A DNA stretch of 64,000 bases, taken from contig JAVXUO010002832.1 in NCBI GenBank assembly GCA_033065855.1, forward strand, positions 135,001 through 199,000. The letters are read 5' to 3'. Every line of letters begins with the position of its first letter. The stretch's first letter is position 1. Source of the DNA: Escallonia rubra (lineage: Eukaryota > Streptophyta > Magnoliopsida > Escalloniales > Escalloniaceae). Under the pieces are notes generated by a model, which was not told the DNA's origin, made no database searches, and worked only from the letters and a program-made list of their open reading frames with translations. This document shows positions 1-30,089 of this stretch, in pieces. Both the position numbers and the translations under genes were made by a program.

Positions 1-2475
1 TGTCTCTCGCTATTGCAGGTATATCATACAATTCTTCATTACGTGCTCTTTGTTGTTTTTTTTGTTGTTGAATGGACAATAAATGTTGACGATACTTTTT
101 TCAATGCCTTTGCTCTCAGGTGTGGTCTTATGAACACCTTGCTACCGGCGCACCCAGGCGTAGGGACGGAACAGATAATGTGTGGCCTCGGTTGTGCGCC
201 TGGGAGTACAGCCGGAAGGAAACCCACTACGAGAGGAGAGACGATCCCCATCACAACATTTCATACTATCGGGGGGAGCTCGACTCGTTATCTCCTGGCC
301 AGATGCGATGGGCACCGTACAAACGTTTGGCGCGACGGGTGGGAGAGTCGTTCGTCTTCACGCTCTCCGGGTTGCAACGCACACCCCTGATCCACTTCGA
401 GGTCGCAGAGTGGCAGCTGCCGGATCGCGCTATGCGCCATTTTGACTGCCTGCAGGGGTTGCCAGCCGGTGCGCCAGATATGAGGCTTAACAGGAACCCA
501 CCGGGTGTCGGACTGTTTGGCAGGGCGAATGCGCACGAGTTGTGCGCGCGTGAAATTGAGGTCTGGAATTCTTGGCAGGACACGCTGGCGGCCATTGTGT
601 CGGAGCCTGACCCCGTCATCAGTATCGAACAGTACAACGAGTGGTACTACCGCATCACCCGGAGGAGAGTAGCTCCAGTAAGGTTTGAACGCGGGGAGAA
701 GTACCACCCTAGGGGTCAGATCGATGAGCACATGGCATACAATCTGGTAAGTTGCCCAACCAGTGCTTCTAATTGAACTTGATCATTCTAAGTGTGTACG
801 AAGTTACTTATTTATTATCTCTCTGGATGTAGGTTAATGCCTCGTTCGCCTTCTTCCAGAAGTTGAGCGAGCGGAAGGATTTGGTGGATGCCATGGGCGA
901 GGAGCTTCGCCAACAGGCTGAAGCGTTGGCGGTTGGCTGCGGGAATTTTTTGCGGCAAGCATCGGGACAGCCAAACCCGGGAATGGGTTATCCGGGGTGG
1001 CAGCGGCCGTTTGTTCCCGAGGGATGCACCGATCCCTCGGGACAGACTTCGGGAGTGAGCCAGGGATATGGTTTTCCCTCTGTACCAGAGATGGCTGGTG
1101 ATTGGGGACCGCCAAGCACCATGGGCCAGGCTCAAGCGCCGTGGGATTATTACAGTGCGCCCTCCTTCTCTTTACGATTGGATTCGGAACCCCAACCCCT
1201 CTCCCAGAGTCAAGTCACGCAAGACTGGATTTTCGGAAACATCAGTCTGCCCATTGTCCCGTGGGCAGGACCATCTATTGCCGAAGGCGGGCAATACCCC
1301 CCGTTGACCCCCCTGAAGGAGTGCAATATCCCCCCGTCGACCCCCCCGAAGGAGTGCAATATCCCCCCGTCGACCCCCCCGAAGGAGTGCAAGACCCCCC
1401 GGTCGACCCCCCCGAAGGAGTGCAATACCCCCCAGTCGACCCCCCCGAAGGAGTGCAATATCCCCCCGTCGACCCCCCCGAAGGAGTGCAATACCCCCCG
1501 GTCGACCCCCGAGGGCAATATCGCAAAGGGCATCCGTTGAAGCCCCTAAAGCCGCAGAAATGCCAGATAATCAGGGAGCGTTATTTTAGCGGCGTCCCGC
1601 ATGACCAAGCGTTGTATAGTGTGGATCATCCGGAGGGCATGGATTACAGTTGCTCGTGGGGAGAACTGGCCTCGCTGGCTCCGGGGAGTTGGTTAGACAC
1701 CGGTGTCGTCTCCACCTACGTGGAGATTCTGAGGGAAAGGTGTCGGCAGCAGCCGAGCTATCCGGCCGTATTTCTGTTCGATGCCTTTTTTCATCAGATG
1801 CTAGTGTCTGAATGGCAGGAGTGGGTCGAACATAGGGGGAAGAAAAAGTTGGCCCACTGGAGACCGTCCTTTAACCTAGGAGCATATATTAATAGGGATA
1901 GTCCGGTGAGCGCAAGTGTTGCCGATGTGTTTCTAATCCCATTTCTAGGGCACAGCCACTGGTACTTGGTTTGCTACTCCCCAACAACTAAAGTCGTATC
2001 GGTGATCGACAGTCTCCACGACGATACTCATCAGATGCCTGTGCTGCACATGTACAAACCCCAATTGGACGCGTTGGTAATATTACGATCGCTGTATAAT
2101 TCTCTGATTCTATCTTGCCATAAATTTTAACTCGTGTCTTACGCCATTTTCTGTTTCTCGCAGAATATTTTTTGTGCAATGGTCAATCGTGCCCGTGATG
2201 TCCCCGTACCGGCGCGGCCAAATCTCAATAGGCGATTGAAGAAGAGGAGGCCCAAGCAACGTAACACTTCGGACTGCGGCGTCTTCCTTTGCATGTACAT
2301 GGATTTCATTTGTCGCTCTGAGAGCCTCAAGGCGGCCGTCTGGAGCCAAGCAGAAGTTGAAGGCTATAGATATAAAATGGCTTGGCAAATTATGAAAGGC
2401 CGGCCTAGAGCGGTTAGGTTTATAGAAAATCCGGCTAATGACGAGAATCCGGCCCAACATGCGGACCCCAGTTGA
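1..2475 (+). CDS. PMD-Ulp1 fusion protein, copy 1 (5' part outside window)
   Basis: MULE-borne gene joining a plant mobile domain (PMD, as in MAIN/MAIL proteins) to a Ulp1/C48 cysteine protease. Exons seen: 1-18, 120-746, 833-2076 and 2164-2475, all with GT/AG borders and all phase 0. The second exon is PMD C-terminal sequence. The last two carry the protease triad: His in H-W at 1957-1959, Asp at 2008-2010, and Cys in D-C-G at 2275-2277. A Pro-rich 11-residue repeat separates the halves. One apparent 1-bp frameshift near 1297-1310, at the repeat's start, breaks the frame: PMD side in one frame, protease in another. It could be a true lesion, an unseen splice or a sequence error. The family could act on SUMO-like modifiers; that role is inferred from the fold only. 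Confidence 0.75.
1290..1521 (+). repeat. 33-bp coding minisatellite (about 7 units)
   Basis: Tandem 33-bp units rich in C runs that read VQYPPVDPPEG in the protease frame and ECNIPPSTPPK in the PMD frame. The array sits in the linker between the PMD and Ulp1 parts. Copy 2 has only a degenerate version of this linker (20890-21050), so the array expanded in copy 1. Confidence 0.9.
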
Positions 2476-2661
2476 AATTGTATCATAACAGTATTTTTTA
2501 CATAAACCGTACGCCATTGGTGTGATTTGATTTGTGTTGATTTCTGTTGTCGTTGGTGTGATTTGATTTGTGTTATTTTTCTGATGAACGTTGTTGGTTT
2601 TTTGGCCTCATTGGGAATGATTGAAATGTGGAAAACGAAATGGTGCAAAAAATTTTTGGAA

Positions 2662-3873
2662 GTTTCTCTGCTGCGCCGTCCGCTACATTGTATCGCGGAC
2701 GTCAAATGAAGACCAAATTTTTCTAAGTGTTGATACCAAAAGTTTCTGCTGCGCCGTCCGCTACATTGTATCGCGGACGTCAAATGAAGACCAAATTTTT
2801 CTAAGTGTTGATACCAAAAGTTTCTGCTGCGCCGTCCGCTACATTGTATCGCGGACGTCAAATGAAGACCAAATTTTTCTAAGTGTTGATACCAAAAGTT
2901 TCTGCTGCGCCGTCCGCTACATTGTATCGCGGACGTACAATGAAGACCAAAATTTTCTAAGTGTTGATACCAAAAGTTTCTGCTGCGCCGTCCGCTACAT
3001 TGTATCGCGGACGTCAAATGAAGACCAAATTTTTCTAAGTGTTGATACCAAAAGTTTCTGCTGCGCCGTCCGCTACATTGTATCGCGGACGTCAAATGAA
3101 GACCAAATTTTTCTAAGTGTTGATACCAAAAGTTTCTGCTGCGCCGTCCGCTACATTGTATCGCGGACGTACAATGAACACCAAATTTTTCTAAGTGTTG
3201 ATACCAAAAGTTTCTGCTGCGCCGTCCGCTACATTGTATCGCGGACGTCAAATGAAGACCAAATTTTTCTAAGTGTTGATACCAAAAGTTTCTGCTGCGC
3301 CGTCCGCTACATTGTATCGCGGACGTACAATGAAGACCAAATTTTTCTAAGTGTTGATACCAAAAGTTTCTGCTGCGCCGTCCGCTACATTGTATCGCGG
3401 ACGTCAAATGAAGACCAAATTTTTCTAAGTGTTGATACCAAAAGTTTCTGCTGCGCCGTCCGCTACATTGTATCGCGGACGTCAAATGAAGACCAAATTT
3501 TTCTGAGTGTTGATACCAAAAGTTTCTGCTGCGCCGTCCGCTACATTGTATCGCGGACGTCAAATGAAGACCAAATTTTTCTAAGTGTTGATACCAAAAG
3601 TTTCTGCTGCGCCGTCCGCTACATTGTATCGCGGACGTCAAATGAAGACCAAATTTTTCTAAGTGTTGATACCAAAAGTTTCTGCTGCGCCGTCCGCTAC
3701 ATTGTATCGCGGACGTACAATGAACACCAAATTTTTCTAAGTGTTGATACCAAAAGTTTCTGCTGCGCCGTCCGCTACATTGTATCGCGGACGTAAAATG
3801 AAGACCAAATTTTTCTAAGTGTTGATACCAAAAGTTTCTGCTGCGCCGTCCGCTACATTGTATCGCGGACGTA
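2662..3873. repeat. 78-bp satellite, 16 units, each with a GTCCGC...GCGGAC palindrome
   Basis: Palindrome cores start every 78 bp from 2678 to 3848 (16 units). Units are almost identical; variants after the core (CAAATG, ACAATG, AAAATG) are interspersed. As 78 is divisible by three, both strands appear open for about 400 codons, but this is not coding. Element 2 holds the same unit in low copy and more diverged form at 22296-22494 and 23592-23945. The array lies between the PMD-Ulp1 stop and the B3 gene. Confidence 0.95.
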
Positions 3874-3888
3874 AAATCCCTGCAATTA

Positions 3889-3984
3889 ACCTACCATTCA
3901 CTATCGAGTGTATCTCAATATATCGAGGCTATTTCAACCTACCATTCACTATCGAGGGTATCTCAATATATCGAGGCTATTTCA
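3889..3984. repeat. 48-bp direct repeat, two copies
   Basis: A 48-bp unit starting CTACCATTCACTATCGAG at 3891 is repeated at 3939. It lies just downstream of the B3 stop codon on the minus strand, so it would fall in that gene's 3' flank. Confidence 0.8.
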
Positions 3985-4057
3985 GTTGAGACAATTAAGC
4001 GAGGAAAAATTTCGATACACAATCAACAAGAACTCAAATTATTTTATTAATCATAAA

Positions 4058-4521
4058 TTAGGGTTCACATTGGGGGAAAGAAATTTTTTCACAAGTGCTC
4101 CGATCAAAGATTACAACTTCAAAATCCCACCACCCAAGGTGTTCAAACACTACAAAGTCCCCGAGTTCGAGGCCATGCTGGCGCACGAAGACGTTCCAAC
4201 CCTCTGCGAATTGCTTTTTTTGGGGTCGGCCGGGCTTCAGCTTGATTTCAACCTGCCATGCCCCCTTGCGGCTATATAATCTTGCACTGTCATGAATTGT
4301 TGTAAATTGATTGGTGAAGGCTTCCGGTATGTCCTAACAAACACAATACACAAAAAATAGGTTAGTTTTTAACCAAAAGATTTAACACACGAAAATACAG
4401 ACATAGAGGGATGGCGTACAAGTTCATTCTCAAACCCCGGCATCATGACTTTGAAAAAGTGTTTGCCTGCCAGGTGCAAGTTGCCAATAAAATCGTAGGT
4501 GGTCTCCGATCCAGAAGCCAT
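4058..4521 (-). CDS. Small B3-domain protein, copy 1 (2 exons, 125 aa)
   Basis: A B3 DNA-binding-domain protein of the plant REM-like type, found by splicing. Exon 1 is 4420-4521 (34 codons from ATG at 4519-4521) and ends in ...PGFENEL before a GT donor (4416-4419, GTAC on the minus strand). Exon 2 is 4058-4333, after a TTAG acceptor, with 91 codons and a stop. B3 hallmarks are HFFKVMMPGF in exon 1 and FAEGWNVFVRQHGLELGDF then FEVVIFDRSTCEKISFP in exon 2. The protein is little more than the domain, so a DNA-binding role is likely by family. It lies between the 78-bp satellite and the palindrome cluster upstream, on the same strand as the transposase. Copy 2 at 25579-26042 preserves the same structure. 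It could be a captured host gene now kept by the element. Confidence 0.85.
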
Positions 4522-4687
4522 CGAGGTCGGCGTTGAGGGGGGACGGTTTATCGCCGGAGTTGTGGATCACCTGTGGGTCGCCGGAGATGGAGGGCCTGGG
4601 CTAGATGTTCCAGACAGAGAGACTGTTATCAGATTGGACTGATAACAGCCGATTGCCCGATATGATTAATATATATCATATAGACTT

Positions 4688-4917
4688 ATCCGCTACATTG
4701 TATAGCGGACATAAAATAAGACCAAAAGTTATGACGTCCGCTATATTATATAGCGGACATTAAAGAAGACCAAAAGTTTGCCTGCTCTAACGTCCGCTAC
4801 ATTGTATAGCGGACGTACAAAGACCAAAAGTTTTACTTCGATGCCACCCCTCCGCTATACAATATAGCGGACGTAAAAGACCAAAGTCAATGATGTCCGC
4901 TACATTGTATAGCGGAC
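4688..4917. repeat. Five-palindrome cluster between B3 and transposase genes
   Basis: Five 23-bp imperfect palindromes of the GTCCGC...GCGGAC type at 4688, 4736, 4792, 4849 and 4895, spaced 46-57 bp, joined by AAAGACCAAAAGTT-like spacers. They lie upstream of the B3 start and downstream of the transposase stop. Element 2 has four at the matching place (26363-26575). Confidence 0.9.
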
Positions 4918-5067
4918 GGGGATTACAAAATAAAAAAAAAACTCGTAATAAAGACTTTAGATTTTATTCGATGGCCTCTCATAGGTCCATTTTAAAAAAA
5001 TTCCAGTACCCGGTCGAAAAATTATCCCTCGAATATTATTACAAATGTCATAAAGTTGTACAAAAAA

Positions 5068-7365
5068 TTAAAGGTCCACTGCAGCTTGTTCGTCCTCATC
5101 TTCGGCGTCACCTTCTTCCCCGTCTTGCAAACCCCTTGAACTTATCCCCAGTGCCTTGTAATGGTTCCGCTTGTCGTGGTCGGTCATTTTGTTGCACAAT
5201 GCACACCTTCGCAGCTTTTTAGGTTGAGTTGCCGTTTCAATAGAGCTTTTCATCCGCGTAGATCTCTTGCGGCCTTTCGTTTGCGATATAATTGGATCCA
5301 ACAAACGGATATCATTGTCGTCTTCCTCCTCCGGCTCGTCATCTTCTGATACCCCCGTCGTAGGCTCGGTGTCAATCGCATTGGTGACTGAAGCTGCTTC
5401 CAACTGGTCGACGATGGGCTCTTGTTGCTGAGCTACCTCGAGGAGATGTTTATAACCGACCATTGTAGCAGCACCTTTTACGGACAAACGGGTGAACATC
5501 GTCACCAGATGATTATACCGCAACGTCTCTGATTCTTCAAAGTCAGTATACGGGTGCTCCGGAAAGGAAATGGTACCGTGCAACCTGTTTGCACCTTTTG
5601 TCCACCGTGGCAAGACGTATTTATCGGGGATTGTCCTGATATTCTTCTGGGTGAAAAACCGCAGAACGTGTCTACACAGGATGCCATGGAACTCAAACTT
5701 CTTGCAAACACATGTCACCGAGTCCGTCAATGTGTCGTGGCTCACCGTATACATTCTGCGCAGCTTCTCAGGGACTAGGTCATTCACGAGCGAATAAACC
5801 TTGTACTCACGCGCAGACATTTCTGCCACCTTGTTTATACTGTATCGTCCGGATTTTCGCAGCTCTACTTGGTATAGCAAGAAGATCTCCTTCGTATAGA
5901 CTTTGGCACCGTTCATCTCCAGCGGGGTCTCGAGCAACGTTCTCCTTTGTTTGTACGTTGTTGCAAAGTCGGCAGCCCTTTCTTTTACGAACAACGAAGC
6001 TACCGCTTTTTGTGCGGATGCAACGAAAGTCTTCAAATTGGTAGCTGTACCCACATAACTATCGAACGTGGCATTCATGGATTCACTCCTGCCCGTCGTT
6101 TTCATGCCCGCTGAAAAATACCTCCTCGTGTAAACGCCAATCCATTGCTCTTTGCGCTCGTACAAGTGCTGGAGCCACTCGTTGTCTTGCAATGAGTAAT
6201 CCCGAACAAGCTTTTCCCACCTCTCCTCGAATTCCTCAATCGTTAACGACTTGAGGACGCACTTGTCAAAATCCTGTTTAAAGTCTTGATACTTTGCGTA
6301 CACGTGATGCAGCCGTTCCGGGTATTTGTTGCTTATGTGCCAGGTGCACAAGTTGTGCCGAGTGTCTGGGAAGACGGTCGCAATAGCCTTCTTCATTGCC
6401 AAATCTTGATCGGTGATGATCACTTTGGGTGCTTTGAAGTTCATTGCTTCCAGCCACGTCCTAAACAACCATTCAAAAGAACTCTCGGTCTCGTCCCTTA
6501 ACAAGGCGAACCCGAACAGGATGGAGTGATAATGATGATTGACCCCCGTGAAAGGGGCGAACGGCATCGAGTACTTGTTGGTACGGTATGTGGTGTCGAA
6601 CGTCACGACATCCCCAAAATGCTTATAAGCAAGCCTCGAACGACCGTCGACCCAAAAAATTGTGCTAACTCGATGCTCGTCGTCAAGTTTATAATCGAAG
6701 GTCAACTGCGGGTCCTCCATCTGCATCCGTTTCAATAGGCTCATTGTGGCTTGAGCATCATTGAGGTCATACGCGGCTCGTCTATGGGTTCGGACCGCGT
6801 TACGAACGTCTGTCGTGTTAAAGGTCAAATTTTGAATTCCCCCAGCCTGTTCAGCAAGAACATTAATCATGTCGGTAGGTCCTAGTCGCGCATTGCTCAT
6901 TGTCTGAATCAGGCTCCTTGCGACCTTACCCATCTTCTTGTGTTGATGCATCTCACTCACCTTAGAAGGGGTTACTAACGGGTGATTGTGTGCCAGTTCC
7001 AGGCTGGTAATAAGCCAATGGTCTTGTTTGGGTTTGTAGCTTACGAACATCTTGACCTGGCAATTTGTGCGCTCAAAGCAGTCCCGTCTTCTACGCGGAT
7101 ATCCTATTTCGTCCTCACTGTCATCATTGCCTACACATGTCTCATTTTGCACTGGGTTTCTGCTCCTATGGCACTCGTATAAGCGAGAGCATATCTTTCT
7201 CGTTATGGTGCTCGTTCTTGAAGTCTTTATTCTAATGCCAAAACCAACCCTCAATGAATACGCTCGAAAACATGCTTCAGCTTCTTCCAACGTAGCAAAT
7301 GTTCGTCCTAGATACGGATCACTAGCATCTACGGGGACGTTGGAGCTCGACACGAAATCAGACAT
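5068..7365 (-). CDS. FAR1-like / MURA-type MULE transposase, copy 1 (intact, 765 aa)
   Basis: Intact transposase of the FAR1/FHY3-related MULE class, expected to bind the element ends and catalyse cut-and-paste transposition in the nucleus. Domains in order: FAR1 zinc-binding region with Cys 59, 65, 96, 102 and His 126/128; MULE catalytic domain with Asp 257 in FDTTY, Asp 319 in TDQDL, and a candidate Glu 428 in GRSESMN; SWIM zinc finger CVC...CRH at 552-566; an acidic stretch; and a C-terminal C-x2-C-x5-H-x4-H at 721-735. I place the start at 7363-7365 (MSDFV) rather than 7408-7410, because copy 2 retains MSDF but has a stop in the upstream frame. It looks functional from sequence alone. Confidence 0.92.
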   Translation of the reverse strand: MSDFVSSSNVPVDASDPYLGRTFATLEEAEACFRAYSLRVGFGIRIKTSRTSTITRKICSRLYECHRSRNPVQNETCVGNDDSEDEIGYPRRRRDCFERTNCQVKMFVSYKPKQDHWLITSLELAHNHPLVTPSKVSEMHQHKKMGKVARSLIQTMSNARLGPTDMINVLAEQAGGIQNLTFNTTDVRNAVRTHRRAAYDLNDAQATMSLLKRMQMEDPQLTFDYKLDDEHRVSTIFWVDGRSRLAYKHFGDVVTFDTTYRTNKYSMPFAPFTGVNHHYHSILFGFALLRDETESSFEWLFRTWLEAMNFKAPKVIITDQDLAMKKAIATVFPDTRHNLCTWHISNKYPERLHHVYAKYQDFKQDFDKCVLKSLTIEEFEERWEKLVRDYSLQDNEWLQHLYERKEQWIGVYTRRYFSAGMKTTGRSESMNATFDSYVGTATNLKTFVASAQKAVASLFVKERAADFATTYKQRRTLLETPLEMNGAKVYTKEIFLLYQVELRKSGRYSINKVAEMSAREYKVYSLVNDLVPEKLRRMYTVSHDTLTDSVTCVCKKFEFHGILCRHVLRFFTQKNIRTIPDKYVLPRWTKGANRLHGTISFPEHPYTDFEESETLRYNHLVTMFTRLSVKGAATMVGYKHLLEVAQQQEPIVDQLEAASVTNAIDTEPTTGVSEDDEPEEEDDNDIRLLDPIISQTKGRKRSTRMKSSIETATQPKKLRRCALCNKMTDHDKRNHYKALGISSRGLQDGEEGDAEDEDEQAAVDL

Positions 7366-7867
7366 TGTGAAACAAGAGCTGTGTAGAAATAGACTACGCT
7401 TAACAATCAAATGGCATTTCTAACTGAAAATATTACCTAAAAATTAGGATGGCAAACATACGGTATGCATAATCTCAAAAGTGTCTCCAAATTAACAATT
7501 ACTAATTTATTGAACATAACAAATTTAAATTAGTAAGATAAATAGACAAATTCATCATGCCAAAAAATCGAATTAAACTATAATGAATTAAATATAAAGT
7601 TAACAAATTATACCTTTTTGATGAACATCATGTCTAGAACATCACAAAAAATCTAGAGTATAAAATCACAAATTGATGAATACAGTGACAAATTTCTAGA
7701 ACATCAAGAAAACTTGAAGCAAACTTACCTTGCTTGACGAAGCTTGAAGCAAGTGTTACTCGAAGCTTGAAGGCAGCTGAAAATGGAAGCGAGTCTGAAG
7801 GAGAAGAAAATTGTGCGGAAAGAATTGAGTAGAAGAAAATTGTGCTGAAAGAAAGGGGATGGGCAAT
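7366..7867 (-). other. 5' leader of transposase copy 1 with a leader intron (7424-7728)
   Basis: On the minus strand a donor CAAG/GTAAGTTT at 7728 and an acceptor TTTTCAG ending at 7424 define a 305-bp intron just upstream of the start codon. Both sites are conserved at the matching place in element 2 (near 29085 and 29500), which supports real splicing. The rest is AT-rich leader and promoter-side sequence with no ORF. Confidence 0.6.
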
Positions 7868-8194
7868 ACTGTCCGCTATACTGTGTAGCGGACAGAATTG
7901 CCGACATCAAGTCACACTTGTGTCAGACAAGTCACAATTGTGTCAGAATGACAGTCGTCCGCTGGACAGTGTAGCGGACTACTTTTTGTCGCAGGTTGTT
8001 TTCGTCCGCTAGATTGTGTAGCGGACGGGGGAGCGAGGGTAAGATGGTAAAAAGATCCGTCCGCGAGACTGTGTAGCGGACGACTGATTGCGCCGCAAAA
8101 AAAAGCGATCTGGACCGTCCATCCCTTCGGGATGGACGGCCAGATCGCGCTGGCAAGATATCCTATTTTGCCTACGCGGTCAAGGGATCAGCTC

Positions 8195-8196
<2 letters not shown>
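7868..8196. repeat. Right TIR of MULE element 1
   Basis: Holds palindromes at 7871, 7957, 8004 and 8059, a hairpin at 8105-8150 with about 20-bp arms around a short loop, and the terminal GATCAGCTCCC at 8186-8196. The same parts in the same order, read inward from the tip, occur at the right ends of element B and element 2, and in inverted order at their left ends. Confidence 0.85.
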
Positions 8197-8260: not shown

Positions 8261-8262
<2 letters not shown>

Positions 8263-8985: not shown

Positions 8986-8990
8986 TCGGG

Positions 8991-17498: not shown

Positions 17499-17501
<3 letters not shown>

Positions 17502-17790: not shown

Positions 17791-17838
<48 letters not shown>

Positions 17839-17979
17839 GTATATATACACGTGTATATACGTATATATACACGTGTATATACGTATATATACACGTGTAT
17901 ATACGTATGTATACATATACGTATATATATATATATACGTGTATATACGTGTATATATATATATACACGTATATATATA
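17791..17979. repeat. (TA)n and TATACGTATATATACACGTG compound microsatellite
   Basis: A pure TA tract passes into roughly 20-bp repeats mixing TACGTA and CACGTG, then ends where the left hairpin of element 2 begins. It occupies the place where element 2's terminal bases should be. Confidence 0.9.
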
Positions 17980-18370
17980 GCCTATACGCGATCTGGCCGT
18001 CTATCCTAAAAGATGGACGGCCCAGATCGCGCCTTTTTCGAAAACTGTCAGTCGTCCGCGACATAGTGTCGCGGACGGGCTTTTTTTACCTTTTTGCCCC
18101 TCCTCCCCCGTCCGCTACACTGTATAGCGGACGTCATTCAAGTCCTGACATGTGACAGCAAAAAGTCGTCCGCTATACAGTGTAACGGACGTCCCCTAGG
18201 CTGACACCTGTCAGGACCAGTCCCGTCAGTCCTTTACGCCCACGACGGTTATCTTGTCCTTATCTGTCCCGTCAGCATTGTCCGCTACACAGTCTGGCAG
18301 ACGTAATAGTCCGCGATATAATGCAGCGGACAACCTAAAATTGTCCGCTACACTGTGTAGCAGCCGTTTC
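17980..18370. repeat. Left TIR of element 2 (tip lost)
   Basis: Hairpin at 17988-18033, palindromes at 18054, 18110, 18168, 18280, 18309 and 18343. Order and spacers (for example CCTTTTTGCCCCTCC and CAGCAAAAAG) match the reverse complement of the right TIR at 29640-30040. Confidence 0.85.
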
Positions 18371-18849
18371 ATATATATTAAAAAAAAAACCCTAACTACG
18401 ACACTCTTCTCCCTTCTTCCTACTCACAAATTTTCCCAGCGACATTGGCAAGCAGATCTTCACAATTTCTTCTTAAGAGCAGCTTTAATAGCCTAATAGA
18501 TCACGTAAGTTCACAAAATCAATCATTTACATGTTTGTAATCTATAGTTGTGATGAATATTGCGTTTTATGCGTGGTTTTGATTATGCATTGAGCATGTG
18601 CTAGCGATGAGAATTTATATATGTATGTATTTGTTCATGTGCTAACGTTTGTAAAATCCGATTCCGTATATGTATATATATCTATTATACATACATATGA
18701 GTATATATGCTAACATTGTATGTATTATGCATGTGCTTGCGTTATATGTATTATGCATGTGCTAGCGTCGTATTTTTGCAAGCGATTATCAAAAACCAAA
18801 CCGTAAAATCCAAACTGAGACCGTTTTTCCATAATTTCAGTTGCAAAAA
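18371..18849 (+). promoter_or_regulatory. Promoter side and 5' leader of PMD-Ulp1 copy 2, with leader intron
   Basis: ATATATATTAAA at about 18371-18382 is a plausible TATA region. A leader intron runs 18505-18840 (CAC/GTAAGT donor, TAATTTCAG acceptor), ending nine bases before the start codon. Placement is by splice-site form only. Confidence 0.5.
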
Positions 18850-21800: not shown

Positions 21801-22041
21801 ATTGAAAAGAAGTAGGCCCAAGCAACATAATTCCTCGGACTGCAGCGTCTTCGTCTGCGTGTACATGGATTACATTTGTCAGTCTGAGAGCCTCAAGAAG
21901 ACCGTCTGGAGCCGAGAATGCATAGAAGGCTTTAGGTATAGGATGGCTTGGCAAATTATCAATGGCCGGCCTAGAGCTATTAGGTTTATTGTAAATCCGT
22001 GTAATAACGAGGATCCCGCAGGAGATGAGGGCCCCAATTGA
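18850..22041 (+). pseudogene. PMD-Ulp1 fusion, copy 2 (full length, broken)
   Basis: Gives the complete gene model that copy 1 lacks. Exons: 18850-18933, 19021-19668, 19751-20377, 20469-21625 and 21730-22041, with GT/AG borders. The start MEFNPRPEDSSVLYDQ is typical of MAIN-like PMD proteins; FPLGEMTITLKDVGFILGLP is the PMD core. The Ulp1 half retains His at 21500-21502 (H-W) and Cys at 21841-21843 (D-C-S). Breaks: stop at 20733-20735, a frame change in the linker, and stops at about 21048, 21422 and 21517. A run of nine C at 21130 marks another unstable point. Not functional as one protein. Confidence 0.85.
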
Positions 22042-22295
22042 CATTGTAACATTATAACATTATATTCACTTTTTTAATAAACATATATTGAATGCGATTG
22101 ATTTGATTTGTGTTGACATTAGTTGATCGGTGTTGAATGCGATTGATTTGATTGACCAATATCGTTGTGTTGTTGAATTCAGTTGAGTGTTTGATTTGTG
22201 GTCAGAGATAGCTTTTTGGCTCATTGACTGATCTGTGATTTGCTTTGAACGGTAGGAAACAAAGTGTGGGCCAGTTTTGGTTTGTGTTCCTGCAG

Positions 22296-22494
22296 GGCCG
22301 TCCGCTATATAGTATAGCGGACGTAGAGAAAACCAAAAAAAAACTAAGTGTTGGAGACCGTCTTTCTGCTGGGTCGTCCGCTCTACTATATAGCGGACGT
22401 AGAGAGAAACAAAAAAAACTAAGTGTTGGAGACTGTCTTTCTGTCGGGCCGTCCGCGTTACTATATAGCGGACGTAGAGAGAAACAAAAAAACT
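22296..22494. repeat. Three diverged satellite-type units with palindromes
   Basis: About 75-bp units (AAACTAAGTGTTGGAGA spacer plus GTCCGC...GCGGAC core) downstream of PMD-Ulp1 copy 2. They correspond in place and sequence to the 78-bp satellite of element 1. Confidence 0.85.
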
Positions 22495-22496
22495 AA

Positions 22497-23588
22497 GGCC
22501 CCGTACGCTTACCATATTTGTTTTCTGTTTTCATTTTCTGTTTTCATTTTCAAGATTTTCATATTCAGTTTGAAAATTGTTCCTGTACTTTTATCATTTT
22601 CCGTATTATTTTTTTCAATTTTTCTTGTACGTTTACCATTCTCATTTTTTTTTACCCAACTTTTTTGGATCGATTCTCCCTCTTCCCCTTCACGAGTTCC
22701 CTTTCCCCTTCCCCTTCCCTGTTCGAGTTCCCTTTCCCCTTCCCCTTCCCCTTCCCTGTTCCCAGCTCTGTGTCCCCATTTCCCTTCCCCTTCCCCTTCA
22801 TTACCATCACCGTAATCCCAACATCCTCAATCCCATCAAATACCCCACAAGTCCCTCCATTTCCACCGCCGACCACCACGGGCCACAGTCCACGACGATT
22901 GAGCGGGGAAGGAAGAACAACCGAACGAAAGCTCTCTGTGTTCATTTCCCTTTCTTAACAAGATCACAAGCTTAGAGCCACCAGTAGCTTCGGTTGTTGA
23001 ATCTCGTGCAAGAGTGCTTGAGAACTCTTCGGTTAGTGACAGGGTGACTCGTCATCGTCTCGGTCAGCCATCCCACGACTGTTGCCTGAATTAGCGGCAT
23101 CAGTCGATGAACCCACAAACCTGAATTCCACAGGCAACGACTTGATCGACTGGAGAGCTTTCTGCGACATTTCCTCGCGACGATGATTCTTGGCCAGCGA
23201 TTTCGTCAACCCATCTCCTTCGTCTGGATTCCGGCGAGATCTCCTTTCGGATGGGAGTTGATGGTGTTGTCTGTGGGTTGTGGTGAAGAAAGAGTACAGG
23301 AAGAGAGATAGAGGGAGAGGCAGAGAGAGTTTGCCGAAGGTCGAGGGGTGAACAATGGCTCTGTACGAGGTGCTAGGGAGGAGAGAGAGGGAGGGAGCAG
23401 CTTCTGACATTGAGTTCGTTTTTTTAGAAAAAGGTGAAAACAGCCTTGGGCTGTTTTCATGATTTTGGCTACTGTTTGGATATTTGGATCCAAAACGAAT
23501 ACCGAAAATGATAAAAGTACGCGAAAAAGAGTATCTTTTTATCATCATTACAAAAAACAAAAACTAAATACTGTAAACGTACGGGCCC
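22497..23588. mobile_element. PIF/Harbinger-like non-autonomous element (TSD TAA)
   Basis: Starts GGCCCCGTACGCTTACC and ends with the imperfect inverse of it (GTAAACGTACGGGCCC). The flanking 3-bp duplication TAA (22494-22496, 23589-23591) restores the interrupted satellite text ACTAAGTGTTGG. The 3-bp TWA duplication and GGSCC tips fit PIF/Harbinger. No transposase. The interior has CCTTCC-rich DNA and, on the minus strand at 23033-23420, a frame (for example QSIKSLPVEFRFVGSS) that may be captured gene sequence; I do not recognise it. Confidence 0.75.
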
Positions 23589-23591
23589 TAA

Positions 23592-23945
23592 GTGTTGGAA
23601 ATCTATTTTTCTGCTTTGCCGTCTGCTCTACTATATAGCGGACGTAGAGAGACAAAAAAAAAACTAAGTGTTGGAGATCTATTTTTCTGCTTGGTCGTCC
23701 GCTATATAGTATGGCGGATGTAGAGAGAAACAAAAAAAAAACTAAGTGTTGGAGACTATGTTTCTGATGGGCCGTCCGCTATACTATATAGCGGACGTAG
23801 AGAGAAATAAAAAAACTAAGTGTTAGAAATCTGTCTTTCTGCTTGGTCGTCCGCTATATAGTATGGCGGATCTAGAGAGAAAAGAGACTGTCTTTTTTGC
23901 TGGGCCGTCCGCTACATAGTAAAGCGGACAGCCCTGGAAAGAAAA
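23592..23945. repeat. Satellite-type units continuing after the insertion
   Basis: Four to five further units of about 75-78 bp with palindrome cores near 23620, 23697, 23774, 23848 and 23907, more degenerate than in element 1. Confidence 0.85.
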
Positions 23946-24007
23946 ACTAAGTGTTAAATTACAAAGAAGCAACATCGTTGACACAGCGTGACGTTGGAGG
24001 AGCATCT

Positions 24008-24364
24008 TCAGTCATCTTCATCTGACACTGGAGCATCGAAAACAGATCCAAGTTCGAATCTCATGTTCCAGTATACTTGTGCTTCATTGTTGTTGCCATC
24101 TTCATGTGCATCACGTGCCATACGACGTAAGTTATGCCTACTTTGACGAACTCTCATTCTATTATTTTCTTCACGTATTCGATGCAGTGCCCTTTCAAGC
24201 TCCATGTGTGTAATTCGAGGCATGTTGATTGCCTTTTGTCGAGGTATGGGTATATTCATGCGTCGTGAATCAGCTACTAAGACCTCATATTCATTCATCC
24301 GACAAGACCATTCTGCATGTAATGTATTAACATAGCGTGATGAGTAACGCAAACTTGGACACAA
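24008..24364 (-). CDS. Small hypothetical protein (118 aa), divergent pair member
   Basis: Arg-rich, acidic C-terminus (PVSDEDD), no known domain recognised. It shares a pattern with the plus-strand ORF at 24783: a Tyr-containing N-terminus, EW-x2-R, then RIREENNRMRVRQ here and RIRMENNRMLLRRK there. The two are divergently arranged around 24365-24782. No counterpart was seen in element 1. It may be an element-specific accessory gene or captured sequence. Confidence 0.45.
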   Translation of the reverse strand: MCPSLRYSSRYVNTLHAEWSCRMNEYEVLVADSRRMNIPIPRQKAINMPRITHMELERALHRIREENNRMRVRQSRHNLRRMARDAHEDGNNNEAQVYWNMRFELGSVFDAPVSDEDD

Positions 24365-24782
24365 AGAATAGTGAAATTCATCTTTGCCCGCCTAGTAACG
24401 ACCCATTGCTTCAAAAATATCTCGTGGAGTATATGAAATTTCTAGAGTTGTTATGAAACTGGGAGTATTTCACTATATGCCCTTTGCCCTTCATGCAATG
24501 CATGTACTTATATATACTTTGAAACGGGACCACTTTATGAGATGCTACAGGTTCAACTTTATGAGATATGACAAGTCGCTGCAATAGACCAGAGACTTGT
24601 CTTGTCACCAAAGACTTGTCTTCTCACTGACACATGCATGCTATTGTCTCCAACTACCAATTAAGCAGGGTGTCAGTGTCCAGAGACTTCTCTTGTCACC
24701 AGAGATGGATTTGTTTATGTGTATGAATGGGCTTATTTATATATGTTAGCCATGCTCATCGCATTAGATGTACCTAAGTTAA
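24365..24782. other. Intergenic region between two divergent small ORFs
   Basis: Contains repeated phrases such as CAGAGACTT.TCTTGTCACC at about 24590-24705 and no ORF. By position it could be a shared promoter region. Confidence 0.35.
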
Positions 24783-25203
24783 ATGGCAGGAGTTCCTGGT
24801 AGTTCTAGTTATCGGGGACGTGAGACTGTGTGGTTGTTGTGTGAAAAGAACGACGACTACAAAGAAGTGAAGTACACCAATCCGAGAGAGTATTATGCAG
24901 GTTTACGAAGAGAATGGGCATATCGAGTTAAGAAATCTGAAGCATTACACCAAGATCTCACCACGCTGAGAGCACCTGTGCCGCAATGTCGTTCACTTAG
25001 TATGTCGAGGCGTAATGTTAAGCAGTGTAAGAAAGCTGTGTGCCGAATCCGTATGGAGAATAACCGGATGTTGCTGCGTAGAAAATGATTTTACATGCTT
25101 CAACTTGCGGAAGAAATGGCCGATGCTAGTGGGAGGCACCTCAATTCAAACGAGAGAAACAATATTTTAACCAATGATCAGTACTTATCTGATGAGTATA
25201 TGT
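24783..25203 (+). pseudogene. Small hypothetical protein, second member, with in-frame stop
   Basis: Reads 101 codons from ATG at 24783 to TGA at 25086-25088, then stays open in the same frame to TAA at about 25203 (continuing LAEEMADASGRH). The downstream part aligns loosely with the C-terminal part of the 24008 ORF, so the TGA looks like a break. Function unknown; related to the ORF at 24008-24364. Confidence 0.45.
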
Positions 25204-25578
25204 AAAATGAAGAGTGATATATATCTCTTCCTACTGCATGTTAGGATTTCATTCCAACTAGCACTTATCCACATGTCATTCTAATTAGCGAACCCCGTCT
25301 TTCGATTTTTCAAGTGTTGGGAATTTCTGTTGCGCCGTCCGCTAGACATTGTAGCGGACGACGAAGACTTGGGTTTTAATAAATTGGTGCCCGAAGACTT
25401 GTTTTAGCGACGGAATCAACCATCTCAATATCGTTTGAACAATAAATAACGTACGATTCACAATCAACAATCTCAATATCGATGGAATCTCAAACGGCAC
25501 AACTAAGCGAGAAAAAATTCGAAAAAATAATGAACATCAACATAAATTTATTCATTCATAATAAATAGAATTTAGGGT
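25204..25578. other. Spacer of element 2 with one palindrome
   Basis: No gene. One palindrome core at about 25338-25360 and CAATCTCAATATCGA-type phrases near 25420-25480 that resemble the 3' flank of the B3 gene in element 1. Confidence 0.6.
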
Positions 25579-26042
25579 TCAACATTGGGGGAAAGAAATT
25601 TTTTCACAAGTGCTCCGATCAAATATCAAAACATGAAAATCCCACGCTCCAATGTGTTCAAACACTACAAAGTCCCCGAGTTGGAGGCCATGCTGCCGCA
25701 CGAATTCGTTCCAACCCTTTGCAAAAATAATTTGACCTTGGAGGCCGCGCTTCATCTTGATTCTTACATGCCATGACCCCTTGCGGCTGGTTAATCTTGA
25801 ATCGAAATAAATTGTGGTAACCCAATCGGAAAAGGCTACCGGTATGTCCTAACATATTCACAATACAAAAAATAGGTTAGTTTTTAACCAAAGATCAAAC
25901 TTTTAACACACGAAAACACAAAGAAAGAGGGATGGCCTATAAGTTCATTCTCAAAACCAGGCACCATGACCTTGAAGAAGTGTCTGCCTGCAAGGTGCAT
26001 GTTGCCAATAAATTCACCGCTACTCGACGAATCAGAAGCCAT
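25579..26042 (-). pseudogene. B3-domain protein, copy 2 (splice donor lost)
   Basis: Exon 1 is 25941-26042 (34 codons, ends PGFENEL) and exon 2 is 25579-25848 (89 codons plus stop), with the domain features FAKGWNEFVRQHGLQLGDF and FHVLIFDRSTCEKISFP. In element 1 the exon 1 border is CTT/GTAC; here it reads CTT/ATAG, a G to A change that removes the GT donor. Unless a cryptic site is used, the domain cannot be joined. Otherwise the copy is still open. Its stop codon falls two codons earlier than in copy 1. Confidence 0.8.
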
Positions 26043-26362
26043 CACGCCGAGAATGTCGCCGAAGGCGCCGCGGCGTTGAGGGGAGGAAGGGGCTGTCGCG
26101 GCGTTAGGGGGAGGACGGTGAGGGTCACCGGAGGTGTTGGTCGCCGGAGATGGGGTAGCGGCTTGGGTTAGATGTTCGAGACATAGAGAGAAATGGACGG
26201 ACTGGGGAGGACGATGGGGTCGGCGGAGATGAGGGTCACCGGAGGTGTGGGTCGCCGTAGATGGGGTAGCGGCTTGGGTTAGATGTTCGAGACAGAGAGA
26301 GAAACAGTCGGACTGATAAGATGATTGCCCGATCTGATTAATATATATAATAAGATATAGTC
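26043..26362. repeat. B3 upstream region with a partial direct duplication
   Basis: A block containing GGTCGCCGGAGATGGGGTAGCG-like text then GATGTTCGAGACA occurs near 26130-26195 and again near 26250-26310 with small changes. Element 1 has a single diverged copy (4560-4630), so this duplicated in element 2. Confidence 0.65.
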
Positions 26363-26575
26363 GTCCGCTATATTGTGTGGCGGACAAAAAGAAGACCAAC
26401 AGTTTTTATGCGATGCCATCCGCTATATTGTGTAGCGGACACGAAGAACACCAACAAATTAGGGCTCTGCATATTCGTCCGCTACATTGTATAGCGAACA
26501 TAAAAGAGGTACAAAATTTTCTAAGGTGTTGGAATTTTAACTCTGCAGATCCGTCCGCTACATAGTGTAGCGGAC
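26363..26575. repeat. Four-palindrome cluster, element 2
   Basis: Palindromes at 26363, 26418, 26477 and 26553, matching in place the cluster at 4688-4917 of element 1. Confidence 0.85.
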
Positions 26576-26742
26576 GGGGCTAATAAAAATAAAATAAAAA
26601 CTTAAACTTAGATTTGATGGCCTCTCATAGGTCCATCAGAAAAAAAAATTCAGTATTCGGTCGAAAAATTATTAGAAACAAATTACCAAAAATTATTACA
26701 AATGTCAAACAGAATTGATGGCTTATACAAAAAATTAAAGGT

Positions 26743-29027
26743 CCACTGCAGCTTGTTCGTCCTCATCTTCGGCGTCATCTTCTTCTTGTCTTGCGAACCC
26801 CCTGGACTTATCCCCAGTGCCTTGTAATGGTTCCGCTTGTCGTGGTCGGTCATTTTGTTGCATAATGCACACCTTCGTAGCTTTTAGGTTGAGTTGCCGT
26901 TTCAATAGAGCTTTTCATCCGCGTAGATCTCTTGCGGCCTTTCGTTTGCGATATAATTGGATTCAACGGCCGGATATCACTGTCGTCTTCCTCCCCCGGC
27001 TCATCATCTTCTGATCCCGTCGTAGGCTCGGTGTCAACCGCATTGGTGACTGAAGCTGCTTCCAACTGGTCAACGATGGGCTCTTACTGCTGAGCTACCT
27101 CGAGGAGATGTTTATAACCGAACATTGTAGCAGCAGCCTTTACGGACAAACGGGTGACCATCGTCACCAGATGATTATACCGCAACGTCTCTGATTCTTC
27201 AAAGTCAATATACGGGTGCTCCGGAAAGGCAATGGTACCGTGCAACCTGTTTGCACCTTTCGTCAACCGTGGCAAGACGTATTTATCAGGGATTGTCCTG
27301 ATATTCTTCTGGGTGAAAAATTACAGAATGTGTCTACACAGGATGCCATGGAACTCAAACTTCTTGCAAACACATGTCACCGAGTCCGTCAATGTGTCGT
27401 GGCTCACCGTATACATTCTGCGCAGCTTCTCAGGGACGAGGTCATTCACTAGCGAATAAACCTTGTACTCACGCGTAGACTTTTCTGCCACCTTGTTTAT
27501 ACAGTATCGTCCCGATTTTTGCAGATCTACTTGGTATAGCAAGAAGATCTCCTTCGTATAGAGTTTGGCACCGCTCAGCTCCAGTGGGGTCTCAAGCAAC
27601 CTTCTCCTCTGTTTGTACGTGGTTGCAAAGTCTGCAGCCCTTTCTTTCACGAACAACGACGCAACCGCTTTCTGTGTGGATGTGACGAAACTCTTCAAAG
27701 TGGTAGTTGTACCCACGTAACTATCGAACGTGGCATTCATAGATTCACTCCTGCCCGTCGTTTTCATGCCCGCAGAAAAATGCCTCCTCGTGTAAATGCC
27801 AATCCATTGCTCTTTGAGCTCGTACAAGTGCTGGAGCCACTCGTTTTCTTGCAATGAGTAATCCTCAACAAGCTTTTCCCACCTCTCCTCAAATTACTCA
27901 ATCGTTAACGACTTGCTAACGCACGTGTCAAAATCCTGTTTAAAGTCTGGAAACTTTGCATACACGTGATGCAAACGTTTGGGATATTTGTTGCTTATGT
28001 TCCAAGTGCACAAGTTGTGTCGAGTATCTGGGAAGGCATTGGTAATAGCCTTCTTCATTGCCAAATCTTGATCGGTGATGATAACCTTTGGTGCTTTGTT
28101 GTTCATGGCTTCCAGCCACTCCCTAAACAACCATTCAAAAGAACTCTCGCTCTCGTCCCTTAACAAGGTGAACCCGAACATGATGGAGTGATAATGATTA
28201 TTGACCCCCGTGAAAGGGGCGAACGGCATCGAGTACTTGTTGGTACGATATGTGGTGTCGAAAGTCACGACATCCCTAAAATGCTTATAAGCAAGCCTCG
28301 AACGATCGTCGACCCAAAAAATTGTGCTAACTCGATGCTCGTCGTCAAGTTTATAATCGAAGGTAAACTGCGGGTCCTCCATCTGCATCCGCTTCAATAG
28401 GCTCATTGTGGCTTGAGCATCATTGAGGTCATACGCGGCTCGTCTATGGGTTCGGACCGCGTTACGAACGTCTGTCATGTTAAAGTTTAAATTTTGAATT
28501 CCCCCAGCCTGTTCAGCAAGAAAATTAATCATGTCGGTAGGTCCTAGCCGCGCATCGCTCATTGTGTGAATGAGGCTCCTCGCGACCTTACCCATCTTCT
28601 TGTGTTGATGCATCTGACTCACCTTAGAAGGGGTTACTAACGGGTGATTGTGTGCCAGTTCTAGGCTGGTAATAAGCCAATGATCTTGCTTGGCTTTATA
28701 GCTTATGAACATTTTGACCTGGCAATTCGTTCGCGCAAAGCAGTCCCGTCTTCTGCGCGAATATCCTATTTCGTCATCACTGTCATCGTTCCCTAGGACT
28801 GTCTCATTTTGCACTGGGTTTCTGCCCCTTTGGCACTCGTATAAGCGAGAGCATATCTTTTTCGTTACGCTGCTCGTTCTTGTAGTCTTTATTCTAATGC
28901 CAAATCCAACCCTCAATGAATACGCTCGGAAACATTCTCCAGCTTCTTCCAATATTTGAAAGGTTCATCCTAGATACGGATCACTAGCATCTACGAGCGT
29001 GTTGGAGCTCGACACGAAATCAGACAT
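26743..29027 (-). pseudogene. FAR1-like / MURA transposase, copy 2 (broken)
   Basis: Highly similar to the transposase at 5068-7365 along its length, from MSDF at 29025-29027 to the acidic tail. In-frame stops lie at about 28965, 27894, 27321 and 27084, and the reading frame shifts before the C-terminal Cys/His motif (about 26880). Both Asp motifs, the SES motif and the SWIM finger are still readable. Since the copy 1 gene is open, it could in principle act on element 2's ends in trans. Confidence 0.92.
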
Positions 29028-29639
29028 TGTGAAACAAGACCTATGTAGAAATATAGACTACGCTTAACAATCAAATGACATTTTCAACTGAAAATATTAC
29101 CTAAAAATTATCTTGACGAATAGACCAATTTAGGATGACAAATATACCATATACATAATCTCAAAAGTCACCCATTTTGCTAATTATAGATTTATCGAAC
29201 ATAACAAATTAAAATTACTAAGATAAATAGACAAATTCATCATGCCAAAATACAACAAACGTATCTCAAAAAATTCGAATTTAACTAGGATAGATGTGCC
29301 GAAGTTAGCGCCCCTCAAAAAAATCAAAATTAACTACAATAAACTTCTTTAAAGTTAACAAATTAATTTCTAGAACATCACAAGTTGATGAATAGAGTGA
29401 CAAATTTCTAGAACATCATCCTAAATCTATACTTTTTTGTCCAAAAAAATATATATACTTTATCAGTCAATCCACCCAGAAAATATTTGAGATCAGAAAC
29501 TTACCTTACTTGACTGAAGATTGAAGCAAGTTTTATTCGAAGCTTGAGGGGAGCCGAAAATGGAAGCAAGTGAATCCGAAGGAGAAGAAAATTTTGCCGA
29601 AAGAGCTGAGAATTAGGGAACTTTGGGGTATACGGGAAA
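29028..29639 (-). other. 5' leader side of transposase copy 2
   Basis: AT-rich, no ORF. The splice acceptor TTTTCAG near 29085 and donor GTAAGTTTC near 29500 of the leader intron are conserved with element 1. Confidence 0.55.
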
Positions 29640-30089
29640 TAATGTCCGCGATACTGTATAGCAAAAATTATTCCCGACACTCTGATACGTGCAAAAATAA
29701 AGTCCCTGAAATAAGGTCCTGACAGGTGTCAGCCTAGGGAACGTCCGCTACACTGCATAGCGGATTCCTTTTTTCTGTCCCGTGTCAGGACTTCAATATC
29801 GTCCGGGATACAGTATAGCAGACGGTGTGGAGGGGCAAAAAGGTAAAGTGTCAGCCTGGGGGACGTCCGCTATACAGTGTTGCGGACGTCTTTTTGCTGT
29901 CTCCAATCAGGACTTTAATGTTGTCCGCTATACAGTGTAGCGGTCAGGCGCGGAGGGGCAAAAAGGTAAAAAAGTCCGTCTGCGACACTGAAAAAGGCGC
30001 GATCTGGGCCGTCCATTTTTCAGGATGGACGGCCAGATCGCACTAGCAAAATAGCCTATTTTGCCAGCACTCTCAACGGATCAGCTCCC
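29640..30089. repeat. Right TIR of element 2
   Basis: Palindromes near 29644, 29743, 29801, 29865 and 29923, hairpin at 29999-30042, tip CTCAACGGATCAGCTCCC ending at 30089. A (TA)n run of about 20 bp follows, then viral sequence. Confidence 0.88.

What the first reader, a model, noticed from the sequence alone, without database searches (positions are those of the whole stretch)
1..30089. MULE family with a conserved PMD-Ulp1 + B3 + FAR1 gene set
Two copies keep the same order, strands and introns for three proteins: a plant mobile domain fused to a Ulp1 protease, a stand-alone B3 domain and a FAR1/MURA transposase. MULEs with Ulp1 genes and TEs with PMD genes are known; the fused protein together with a B3 protein in one element is not something I recall being described. 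Two copies that share all three make a chance collection unlikely.
Basis: partly seen in the sequence, partly recalled or inferred. Interest (0 to 1): 0.9.

Follow-up and report, generated by a model that had tools for sequence, protein, structure and literature searches.

The report
Multi-gene transposon with palindrome arrays
This is a family of plant jumping genes whose intact copies carry three protein genes (a transposase, a DNA-binding protein and a mobile-domain protein fused to a SUMO-cutting protease) plus arrays of a short palindromic DNA motif, and its many near-identical recent copies in one shrub genome make it a good place to ask how transposons escape silencing.

Summary
Two diverged copies (1-8196, left end lost in an N run; ~17976-30089) carry PMD-Ulp1 (+), B3 (-) and FAR1/MULE transposase (-). 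Two capped searches of the own genome (566 Mb, probably Escallonia) list 214 B3 loci; 61 encode exon 2 identical to copy 1's. Of 30 of these read, 29 have FAR1 on the same strand and 20 show PMD/Ulp1 on the opposite strand. Four of four longer copies are open in every exon tested; the two with both ends read are 9.2 kb. Between subfamilies dN/dS is 0.25 (FAR1), 0.26 (PMD), 0.61 (Ulp1) and 0.58 (B3, not significant). A 21-bp palindrome fills TIRs and intergenic arrays and is absent from coding sequence in both complete copies counted; 30 loci show 29 different spacing patterns. It is a (TA)n-inserted MULE. My reading is that B3 and PMD-Ulp1 act on these arrays against silencing, as VANC does; that function is inferred. 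Each part is known; I did not find the combination in print. New variant of a known kind.

The parts
1..8196 (+). Element copy 1 (subfamily 1); left end lies in an N run upstream of the window; right end GGATCAGCTCCC at 8185-8196 followed by (TA)n
120..2475 (+). PMD-Ulp1 gene, copy 1: exons 120-746 (PMD C-half), 833-2076 (linker with 11-aa repeats, Ulp1 N-part; 1-nt frameshift near 1297), 2164-2475 (Ulp1 C-part with catalytic Cys)
2679..3869 (.). Array of 16 palindromes at 78-bp spacing, downstream of PMD-Ulp1
4061..4521 (-). B3 gene, copy 1 (exon 1 4521-4420, exon 2 4333-4061; 125 aa, open)
4689..4916 (.). Cluster of 5 palindromes between B3 5' end and FAR1 3' end
5068..7365 (-). FAR1/MULE transposase, copy 1, intact single-exon frame of 765 aa
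7872..8196 (.). Right TIR region with 4 palindromes; ends at (TA)n
17976..30089 (+). Element copy 2 (subfamily 2); left terminus not clean (start approximate), right end GGATCAGCTCCC at 30078-30089 next to (TA)n
18055..18364 (.). Left TIR region of copy 2 with 6 palindromes
18850..22041 (+). PMD-Ulp1 gene, copy 2 (stops in linker and Ulp1); exon 1 start at 18850 placed by likeness to protein P0002
22301..23928 (.). Array of 8 palindromes (mostly 75-77-bp spacing), split by a ~1.1-kb foreign insertion at about 22497-23590
24008..24391 (-). SMm: small helical protein gene, no Pfam family; one stop relative to the 143-aa majority form of other copies
24783..25205 (+). SMp: divergently oriented paralogue of SMm (31% identity), premature TGA in this copy; open 144-aa form in C1050
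25338..25358 (.). Single palindrome between SMp and B3
25582..26042 (-). B3 gene, copy 2 (donor GT changed to AT)
26364..26574 (.). Cluster of 4 palindromes between B3 and FAR1
26738..29027 (-). FAR1/MULE transposase, copy 2, interrupted by stops and frameshifts
29645..30089 (.). Right TIR region of copy 2 with 5 palindromes

Best explanation
An autonomous, recently amplified Mutator-like element (9.2 kb in the two copies with both ends read; TIRs beginning GGGAGCTGATCC, sitting in (TA)n tracts). The FAR1-type transposase moves it (inferred from domains). The conserved companion genes form one module with the palindromes: a B3 protein and/or the PMD-Ulp1 protein reads the 21-bp palindrome that fills the TIRs and intergenic arrays. 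PMD-Ulp1 then works locally against host silencing: its Ulp1 part removes SUMO from chromatin or silencing proteins, and its PMD part interferes with the host MAIN/MAIL1 type of PMD pathway. This keeps the element expressed, as VANC does for VANDAL elements. Shown here: anatomy, gene-set conservation, recency, dN/dS, complete catalytic residues, motif distribution, different arrays in different copies. Inferred: who binds the motif, deSUMOylation, anti-silencing.
For: Same three genes, order and strands in two subfamilies and many loci. FAR1 CDS differs by 0-9 of 2295 nt among copy 1 and four other copies, and PMD exons 2+3 by 0-1 of 1272 nt among those four, so complete copies moved recently. 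Constraint between subfamilies: FAR1 0.25 (0.18-0.37), PMD C-half 0.26 (0.15-0.44), linker 0.46 (0.27-0.68), Ulp1 0.61 (0.43-0.86). Ulp1 aligns with human SENP2 (3.5e-14) with His, Asp, Gln and Cys conserved. 26 motifs per complete element, 0 in coding (2 of 2 elements counted). 29 different spacing patterns among 30 loci with identical B3 exon 2, within the 1752 bp read. Motif 18/21 conserved between subfamilies, spacer 33/57. The linker has an 11-aa tandem repeat that varies in number between near-identical copies. The VANC paper reports the same three features: non-coding motifs, dynamic tandem repeats, tandem peptide motifs in variable protein regions (PMC5735166, passages). Ikeda et al. 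already speculate that MULE-captured PMDs serve anti-silencing (PMC5418596, passages). A review describes Ulp1-bearing KIU elements as hypomethylating (PMC13317346, passages).
Against: No expression, binding or methylation data. The motif also lies in the TIRs, so it could simply be the transposase site. The motif core stays the same in both subfamilies although B3 exon 2 is only 69% identical between the copies, so no motif-reader coevolution is seen. Within subfamily 2 the motif is not more conserved than the spacer (0.87 against 0.90). B3 constraint alone is not significant (0.58, 0.31-1.20, p 0.06), and single copies against their majority show relaxed pN/pS of 0.51-0.73 in every gene. C-to-T decay gives no sign of a protected array: CpG retention is 0.82 in arrays against 0.81-0.93 in the genes. 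SMm/SMp come and go, so not every carried gene is needed. Array differences could be partly assembly error.
Confidence: 0.45

Rival explanations
1. The palindromes are transposase (FAR1) binding sites and the internal arrays are surplus or decoy sites; B3 and PMD-Ulp1 help transposition (target choice, complex turnover), not anti-silencing.
For: In L062 three palindromes lie within each 245-bp TIR and one just inside it; the transposase is the protein expected to act on the TIRs (domain knowledge). The motif is symmetric without covariation of inner pairs, which fits a two-fold protein site rather than a folded strand. The motif core is the same in TIRs and arrays.
Against: Most motifs (18 of 26 in L059 and L062, 29 of 37 in L060, 28 of 36 in L061) are internal, between genes, which cut-and-paste transposition does not need; internal arrays are kept in both subfamilies.
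Confidence: 0.3
2. B3, PMD-Ulp1 and SMm/SMp are captured passengers (Pack-MULE style) that ride along without benefit to the element.
For: MULEs often capture host gene pieces (PMC2528002, PMC13317346, passages). SMm/SMp are absent from the most amplified subfamily (0 of 30 read loci). B3 dN/dS is not significantly below 1. Two of 11 TIR-anchored stretches lack B3 through deletion.
Against: PMD and Ulp1 dN/dS significantly below 1 between subfamilies; 214 listed B3 loci in several lineages, 137 of the 150 rows without a stop in exon 2 (those copies are young, so this is weak); own introns, own intergenic regions, fixed order.
Confidence: 0.12
3. The palindromes are transcript boundary or terminator signals separating the genes, unrelated to B3/PMD-Ulp1.
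For: They lie at gene ends and between genes.
Against: Arrays of 13-24 copies are excessive for termination; the motif is also in the TIRs in front of the first and last gene; inner stem pairs show no covariation.
Confidence: 0.08

Closest known systems
VANDAL/Hiun elements with VANC anti-silencing proteins (Arabidopsis MULEs)
   Same: Multi-gene MULE; short motif repeated in non-coding regions as rapidly changing tandem arrays; accessory protein with tandem peptide repeats (PMC5735166 passages; PMC10398659 abstract, outline and one passage).
   Different: VANDALs have degenerate TIRs; here TIRs are 245 bp at 91.5% (L062). Motif is a 21-bp palindrome, not the 9-bp YAGTATTAY. No anti-silencing test. 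VANC homology was not tested here.
KIU/Kaonashi and other Ulp1-carrying MULEs (Arabidopsis, melon, rice, grapevine)
   Same: Ulp1 gene or domain inside a MULE (PMC13317346, PMC2528002 passages).
   Different: Described as non-TIR MULEs in Arabidopsis; here Ulp1 is the C-terminal part of a PMD protein and a B3 gene is added.
PMD-bearing MULEs of grasses and Amborella
   Same: PMD inside a MULE, anti-silencing speculated (PMC5418596 passages).
   Different: There PMD is fused to the transposase; here it is fused to Ulp1 in a separate gene, in a eudicot.
AutoMuTAnT (Medicago) and SaTar/AgS-MULE arrays (guayule, rice)
   Same: TIR-bearing MULE inserted in (TA)n microsatellites; modules stacked end to end with (TA)n between (PMC4486113, PMC5907723 passages).
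   Different: AutoMuTAnT is 4.9 kb with one Jittery-like ORF; the SaTar main text has no occurrence of FAR1, plant mobile or Ulp1 (B3 was not looked for there).
FAR1-RELATED SEQUENCE 5-like proteins of Apiaceae (Daucus, Apium)
   Same: Closest named relatives of the transposase, 40-41% identity over most of the length; two unnamed proteins score higher at 46-47%.
   Different: Annotated as FAR1-related proteins; their neighbourhood could not be read here.

Membership tests
Mutator-like elements (MULE) | MULE-type DDE transposase | tested here: met
   PF10551 4e-33 and 1.2e-31, FAR1 and SWIM domains
Mutator-like elements (MULE) | Terminal inverted repeats | tested here: met
   245 bp, 91.5% in L062, the one copy measured
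Mutator-like elements (MULE) | 8-11 bp target site duplication | tested here: inconclusive
   Flanks are (TA)n, so a TSD cannot be told apart
(TA)n-targeting MULEs (MuTAnT/SaTar) | Insertion in (TA)n tracts | tested here: met
   Both flanks in L059 and L062; right flank of window copies 1 and 2
(TA)n-targeting MULEs (MuTAnT/SaTar) | Non-nested end-to-end arrays of different elements | tested here: met
   In this one window: copy 1 | (TA)n | 8261-17437 | (TA)n | 17499-~17793 | (TA)n | copy 2; copy 2's left terminus is not clean, and the second module holds an LTR element
[quoted passage not shown]
   26 motifs per element, 0 in coding, 2 of 2 elements
VANC-type anti-silencing system | Motif arrays change rapidly between related copies | tested here: met
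   29 spacing patterns among 30 loci, 23 for the last eight spacings; assembly error not excluded
VANC-type anti-silencing system | Element protein binds the motif and removes silencing marks | not testable with these tools
   needs EMSA/ChIP and methylome
VANDAL elements | Degenerate or absent TIRs | tested here: not met
   245-bp TIRs
VANDAL elements | VANC homologue | not tested
   no VANC sequence was compared
Ulp1/SENP cysteine protease (C48) | Catalytic His-Asp-Gln-Cys | tested here: met
   aligned with SENP2, E 3.5e-14; also in the subfamily 2 majority sequence
PMD-C MULEs | PMD of clade C fused to transposase | tested here: not met
   PMD is fused to Ulp1, transposase is a separate gene; PMD clade not tested
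B3 (REM-like) | B3 domain by sequence | tested here: met
   PF02362 1.5e-10 and 1.6e-12; nearest PDB chains VRN1 (0.01) and At1g16640 (0.037), both weak; REM membership itself not tested
Pack-MULE | Non-autonomous carrier of gene fragments | tested here: not met
   complete transposase and companion genes in 4 of 4 longer copies

The most novel reading that the evidence does not exclude
PMD-Ulp1 plus B3 is a separately evolved, sequence-guided anti-silencing system of a TIR MULE: B3 (or PMD-Ulp1) reads palindrome arrays and the Ulp1 part removes SUMO from silencing complexes there, which let one subfamily spread to many near-identical intact copies.
Probability: 0.28. Interest if true: 0.87.

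Novelty: new variant of a known kind. Interest (0 to 1): 0.7.

Why it matters
It gives complete, apparently recently active MULE copies with a defined companion-gene set and a defined candidate cis motif, so the open question of why transposons carry Ulp1 and PMD genes can be tested directly: express each protein, map its binding to the palindrome, and look at methylation and mobility. It also joins two ideas that I found only apart in print: Ulp1/VANC-type anti-silencing and capture of PMD silencing genes.

Tried and rejected
Rejected: chance collection of genes; one recent segmental duplication; palindromes as a conserved RNA/cruciform fold (no covariation at inner pairs in 64 distinct sites); one universal gene set (SMm/SMp in 0 of 30 read subfamily-1 loci; and 123 of 150 SMm loci have no listed B3 within 4 kb, though the lists are capped).

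Led nowhere: SM fold (AF2 mean pLDDT 74.5, three helices, no PDB match at E<=0.001); CpG decay as a footprint of hypomethylation; locus-tag neighbourhood of Escallonia proteins (no protein named Escallonia among the 120 FAR1 hits listed of 1851); search for other plants with B3 or PMD-Ulp1 (the B3 search returned one protein, from Escallonia herrerae; the PMD-Ulp1 search scored only the 8000 candidates sharing most words and returned four, all Escallonia, so absence elsewhere is not shown). The planned genome-wide PMD and FAR1 neighbour census did not complete. In one search the script stopped on a zero division after printing the dN/dS rows used here. The 11 TIR-anchored stretches cover 15 of the 39 other full-length TIR matches scored and were chosen for TIR pairs and best scores, not at random. 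A sugarcane paper with MULE and B3 words has the B3 gene only as a syntenic neighbour (PMC3418495, passages).

Print searches behind the novelty claim: (open-licence PMC only). Papers were seen as search listings and passages found by term; PMC10398659 also as abstract and outline. Hoen 2006, van Leeuwen 2007 and Babu 2006 were not read; van Leeuwen and Babu were seen cited, Hoen is recalled. The labels Pack-MULE and REM, and the Ulp1 catalytic residues by name, are from recall.
Full report
What is there. The window is contig C2983, bases 135001-199000, of a 566-Mb assembly. The protein matches found for copy-1 B3 and PMD-Ulp1 are all from Escallonia rubra and E. herrerae, so the plant is probably an Escallonia; this is inference. 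Two element copies lie in 1-30089. Pfam confirms PMD, Peptidase_C48, MULE, FAR1 and SWIM domains, and the two-exon B3 protein is confirmed in both copies. Copy 1 runs into N upstream of the window. Copy 2 has stops in linker, Ulp1 and FAR1.

The family. A 127-bp TIR query scored 40 of 1530 candidates in the genome. I fetched 11 stretches around such matches besides the window, chosen for TIR pairs and best scores. In copy-2 orientation, five (C1050, C1569, C866, C2239, C1248) have at least part of PMD-Ulp1, SMm, SMp, B3 and FAR1 in the same order and strands; PMD is truncated in C2239 and only a fragment was read in C866. Three are cut by contig ends or N (C3046, C1049, C3010); two are deletion derivatives (C2195 without SMp, B3 and most of FAR1; C2558 without SM, B3 and most of Ulp1); one (C2524) has only TIR motifs. 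These are 'subfamily 2'. SMm and SMp are divergently oriented paralogues, 31% identical in the window copy, with forms of 143-144 aa ending in acidic tails; no Pfam family and no similar solved fold.

Copy 1's subfamily is the most amplified one seen. A B3 search scored 150 of 2129 candidates; 61 rows are 100% identical to copy 1 over exon 2. A second search with the subfamily-2 B3 raised the number of distinct listed loci to 214; both lists are capped, so this is a lower bound. In the 30 loci read around the identical B3 (3.27 kb each), 30 of 30 have B3 exon 1 (one with a stop), 29 have FAR1 on the same strand and 20 have Ulp1 or PMD on the opposite strand; in the other ten, 17-20 palindromes fill the flank. 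None has SM genes. Four longer copies (L059-L062) all have PMD-Ulp1, B3 and FAR1. PMD exon 2, exons 3-5 joined, both B3 exons and FAR1 are open in all four; exon 1 of PMD-Ulp1 was not found by my pattern and was not tested, and the stop counted in Ulp1 is the intron read through there. FAR1 coding sequences of copy 1 and these four differ by 0-9 of 2295 bases, two being identical: recent transposition of complete elements. The two copies with both ends read are 9214 and 9250 bp (L059, L062); TIRs measured in L062 are 245 bp at 91.5%, starting GGGAGCTGATCC, inside (TA)n.

Selection. Comparing copy 1 with the majority codons of subfamily 2 gives dN/dS 0.25 for FAR1 (bootstrap 0.18-0.37), 0.26 for the PMD C-half (0.15-0.44), 0.46 for the linker (0.27-0.68), 0.61 for Ulp1 (0.43-0.86), 0.58 for B3 (0.31-1.20, Fisher p 0.06). 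So FAR1 and PMD are clearly, Ulp1 moderately, B3 only possibly constrained by this one comparison. Single copies against the majority give pooled pN/pS of 0.51-0.73 in every gene, as expected for elements that decay after insertion. Synonymous divergence is unequal (FAR1 0.12, B3 0.25, PMD 0.33, Ulp1 0.41), and FAR1 has blocks of 1-3% nucleotide difference (codons 205-306, 511-663) between blocks at 6-10%, which suggests exchange between subfamilies.

The palindrome. TCCGCTAYA-N-TRTAGCGGA-like sites (21 bp, up to 5 mismatches) number 57 in the window, all in 1-30089, none in 30090-64000, none in 5 Markov simulations. They lie in both TIRs, in an array after Ulp1, as a single site between SMp and B3 (subfamily 2), and in a cluster between B3 and FAR1; two complete elements have 26 each, none in coding sequence. 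Inner pairs show no covariation over 64 distinct sites, so a symmetric protein site is likelier than a folded strand. Array spacings are 78 and 55 bp in most subfamily-1 copies and about 75-77 bp in subfamily 2; the motif is 18/21 identical between subfamilies, the spacer 33/57, but within subfamily 2 alone the motif is not more conserved than the spacer (0.87 against 0.90). Thirty loci with identical B3 exon 2 show 29 spacing patterns in the 1752 bp read, 23 for the last eight spacings alone. The coding linker also carries an 11-aa tandem repeat of varying number. Assembly error in arrays cannot be excluded.

How it most likely works. FAR1 moves the element (domain inference). The Ulp1 part aligns with SENP2 with its catalytic residues, so it is probably an active SUMO protease. 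B3 is a DNA-binding domain, weakly nearest to VRN1 and At1g16640 among solved structures. Host PMD proteins MAIN/MAIL1 silence transposons (PMC5418596, PMC7156037, passages). The layout, with a motif in non-coding arrays, arrays that differ between near-identical copies and a protein with tandem peptide repeats, repeats the reported signature of VANC anti-silencing (PMC5735166, passages). I therefore favour an element-encoded anti-silencing module, at 0.45. Against it: the motif is also in the TIRs, the motif core does not change with B3, CpG decay shows no protected arrays, and no experiment exists. The strongest rival is that the palindrome is the transposase site.

What is known. Each part has precedent: Ulp1 in MULEs (PMC13317346, PMC2528002, passages), PMD in MULEs as transposase fusions, genic PMD fused to a protease mentioned in passing (PMC7156037), (TA)n-targeting MULEs and stacked arrays (PMC4486113, PMC5907723, passages), motif arrays in VANDALs. 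I found no report of PMD-Ulp1 plus B3 plus FAR1 in one element (open-licence PMC only, so the claim is limited). It is a new variant of a known kind.

Limits. The SMm search (150 of 1347 candidates scored) shows SM genes at many loci without a B3 in my capped lists (123 of 150 within 4 kb; 19 in the subfamily-2 layout, 8 in an inverted layout), so SM may be a separate module that several element families share.

Noticed in passing
window 8261-17437: A further element with the same GGGAGCTGATCC termini and palindrome-bearing TIRs, between (TA)n tracts, holding an LTR-retrotransposon-like pair of repeats (8991-12198, 13234-16441) that differ by 1 of 3208 bases, with an interior of only about 1 kb.
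   Followed up: partly
window 17499-17793: A short element starting GGGAGCCGATCC between two (TA)n tracts, the third module in a SaTar-like stack.
   Followed up: no
window 32376-44025: Caulimovirus-like endogenous pieces: coat protein domain, A3B peptidase, reverse transcriptase/RNase H. Described only.
   Followed up: no
window 24008-25205; G000 genome-wide: SMm/SMp: paralogous small helical proteins of unknown family; SMm has 150 scored loci, seven of them identical to the query; found in two orientations relative to B3.
   Followed up: partly
FAR1 of copies 1 and 2: Blocks of near identity between otherwise diverged subfamilies point to recombination or gene conversion between elements.
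   Followed up: partly
window 1281-1527: A 33-bp coding minisatellite in the PMD-Ulp1 linker varies in number (6 pattern matches in copy 1; 2, 5, 3, 4 in L059-L062) between near-identical copies.
   Followed up: partly
L009 40-986: Another PMD gene (45% identity) on the minus strand upstream on the same contig, not of this family.
   Followed up: no
protein P0003 (Escallonia rubra): The deposited protein joins this element's PMD to other parts, among them pentatricopeptide repeats by its precomputed Pfam list, so the family may be hidden in host annotation.
   Followed up: no
window 49352-49927: A minus-strand reverse transcriptase fragment (PF00078, 1e-16).
   Followed up: no
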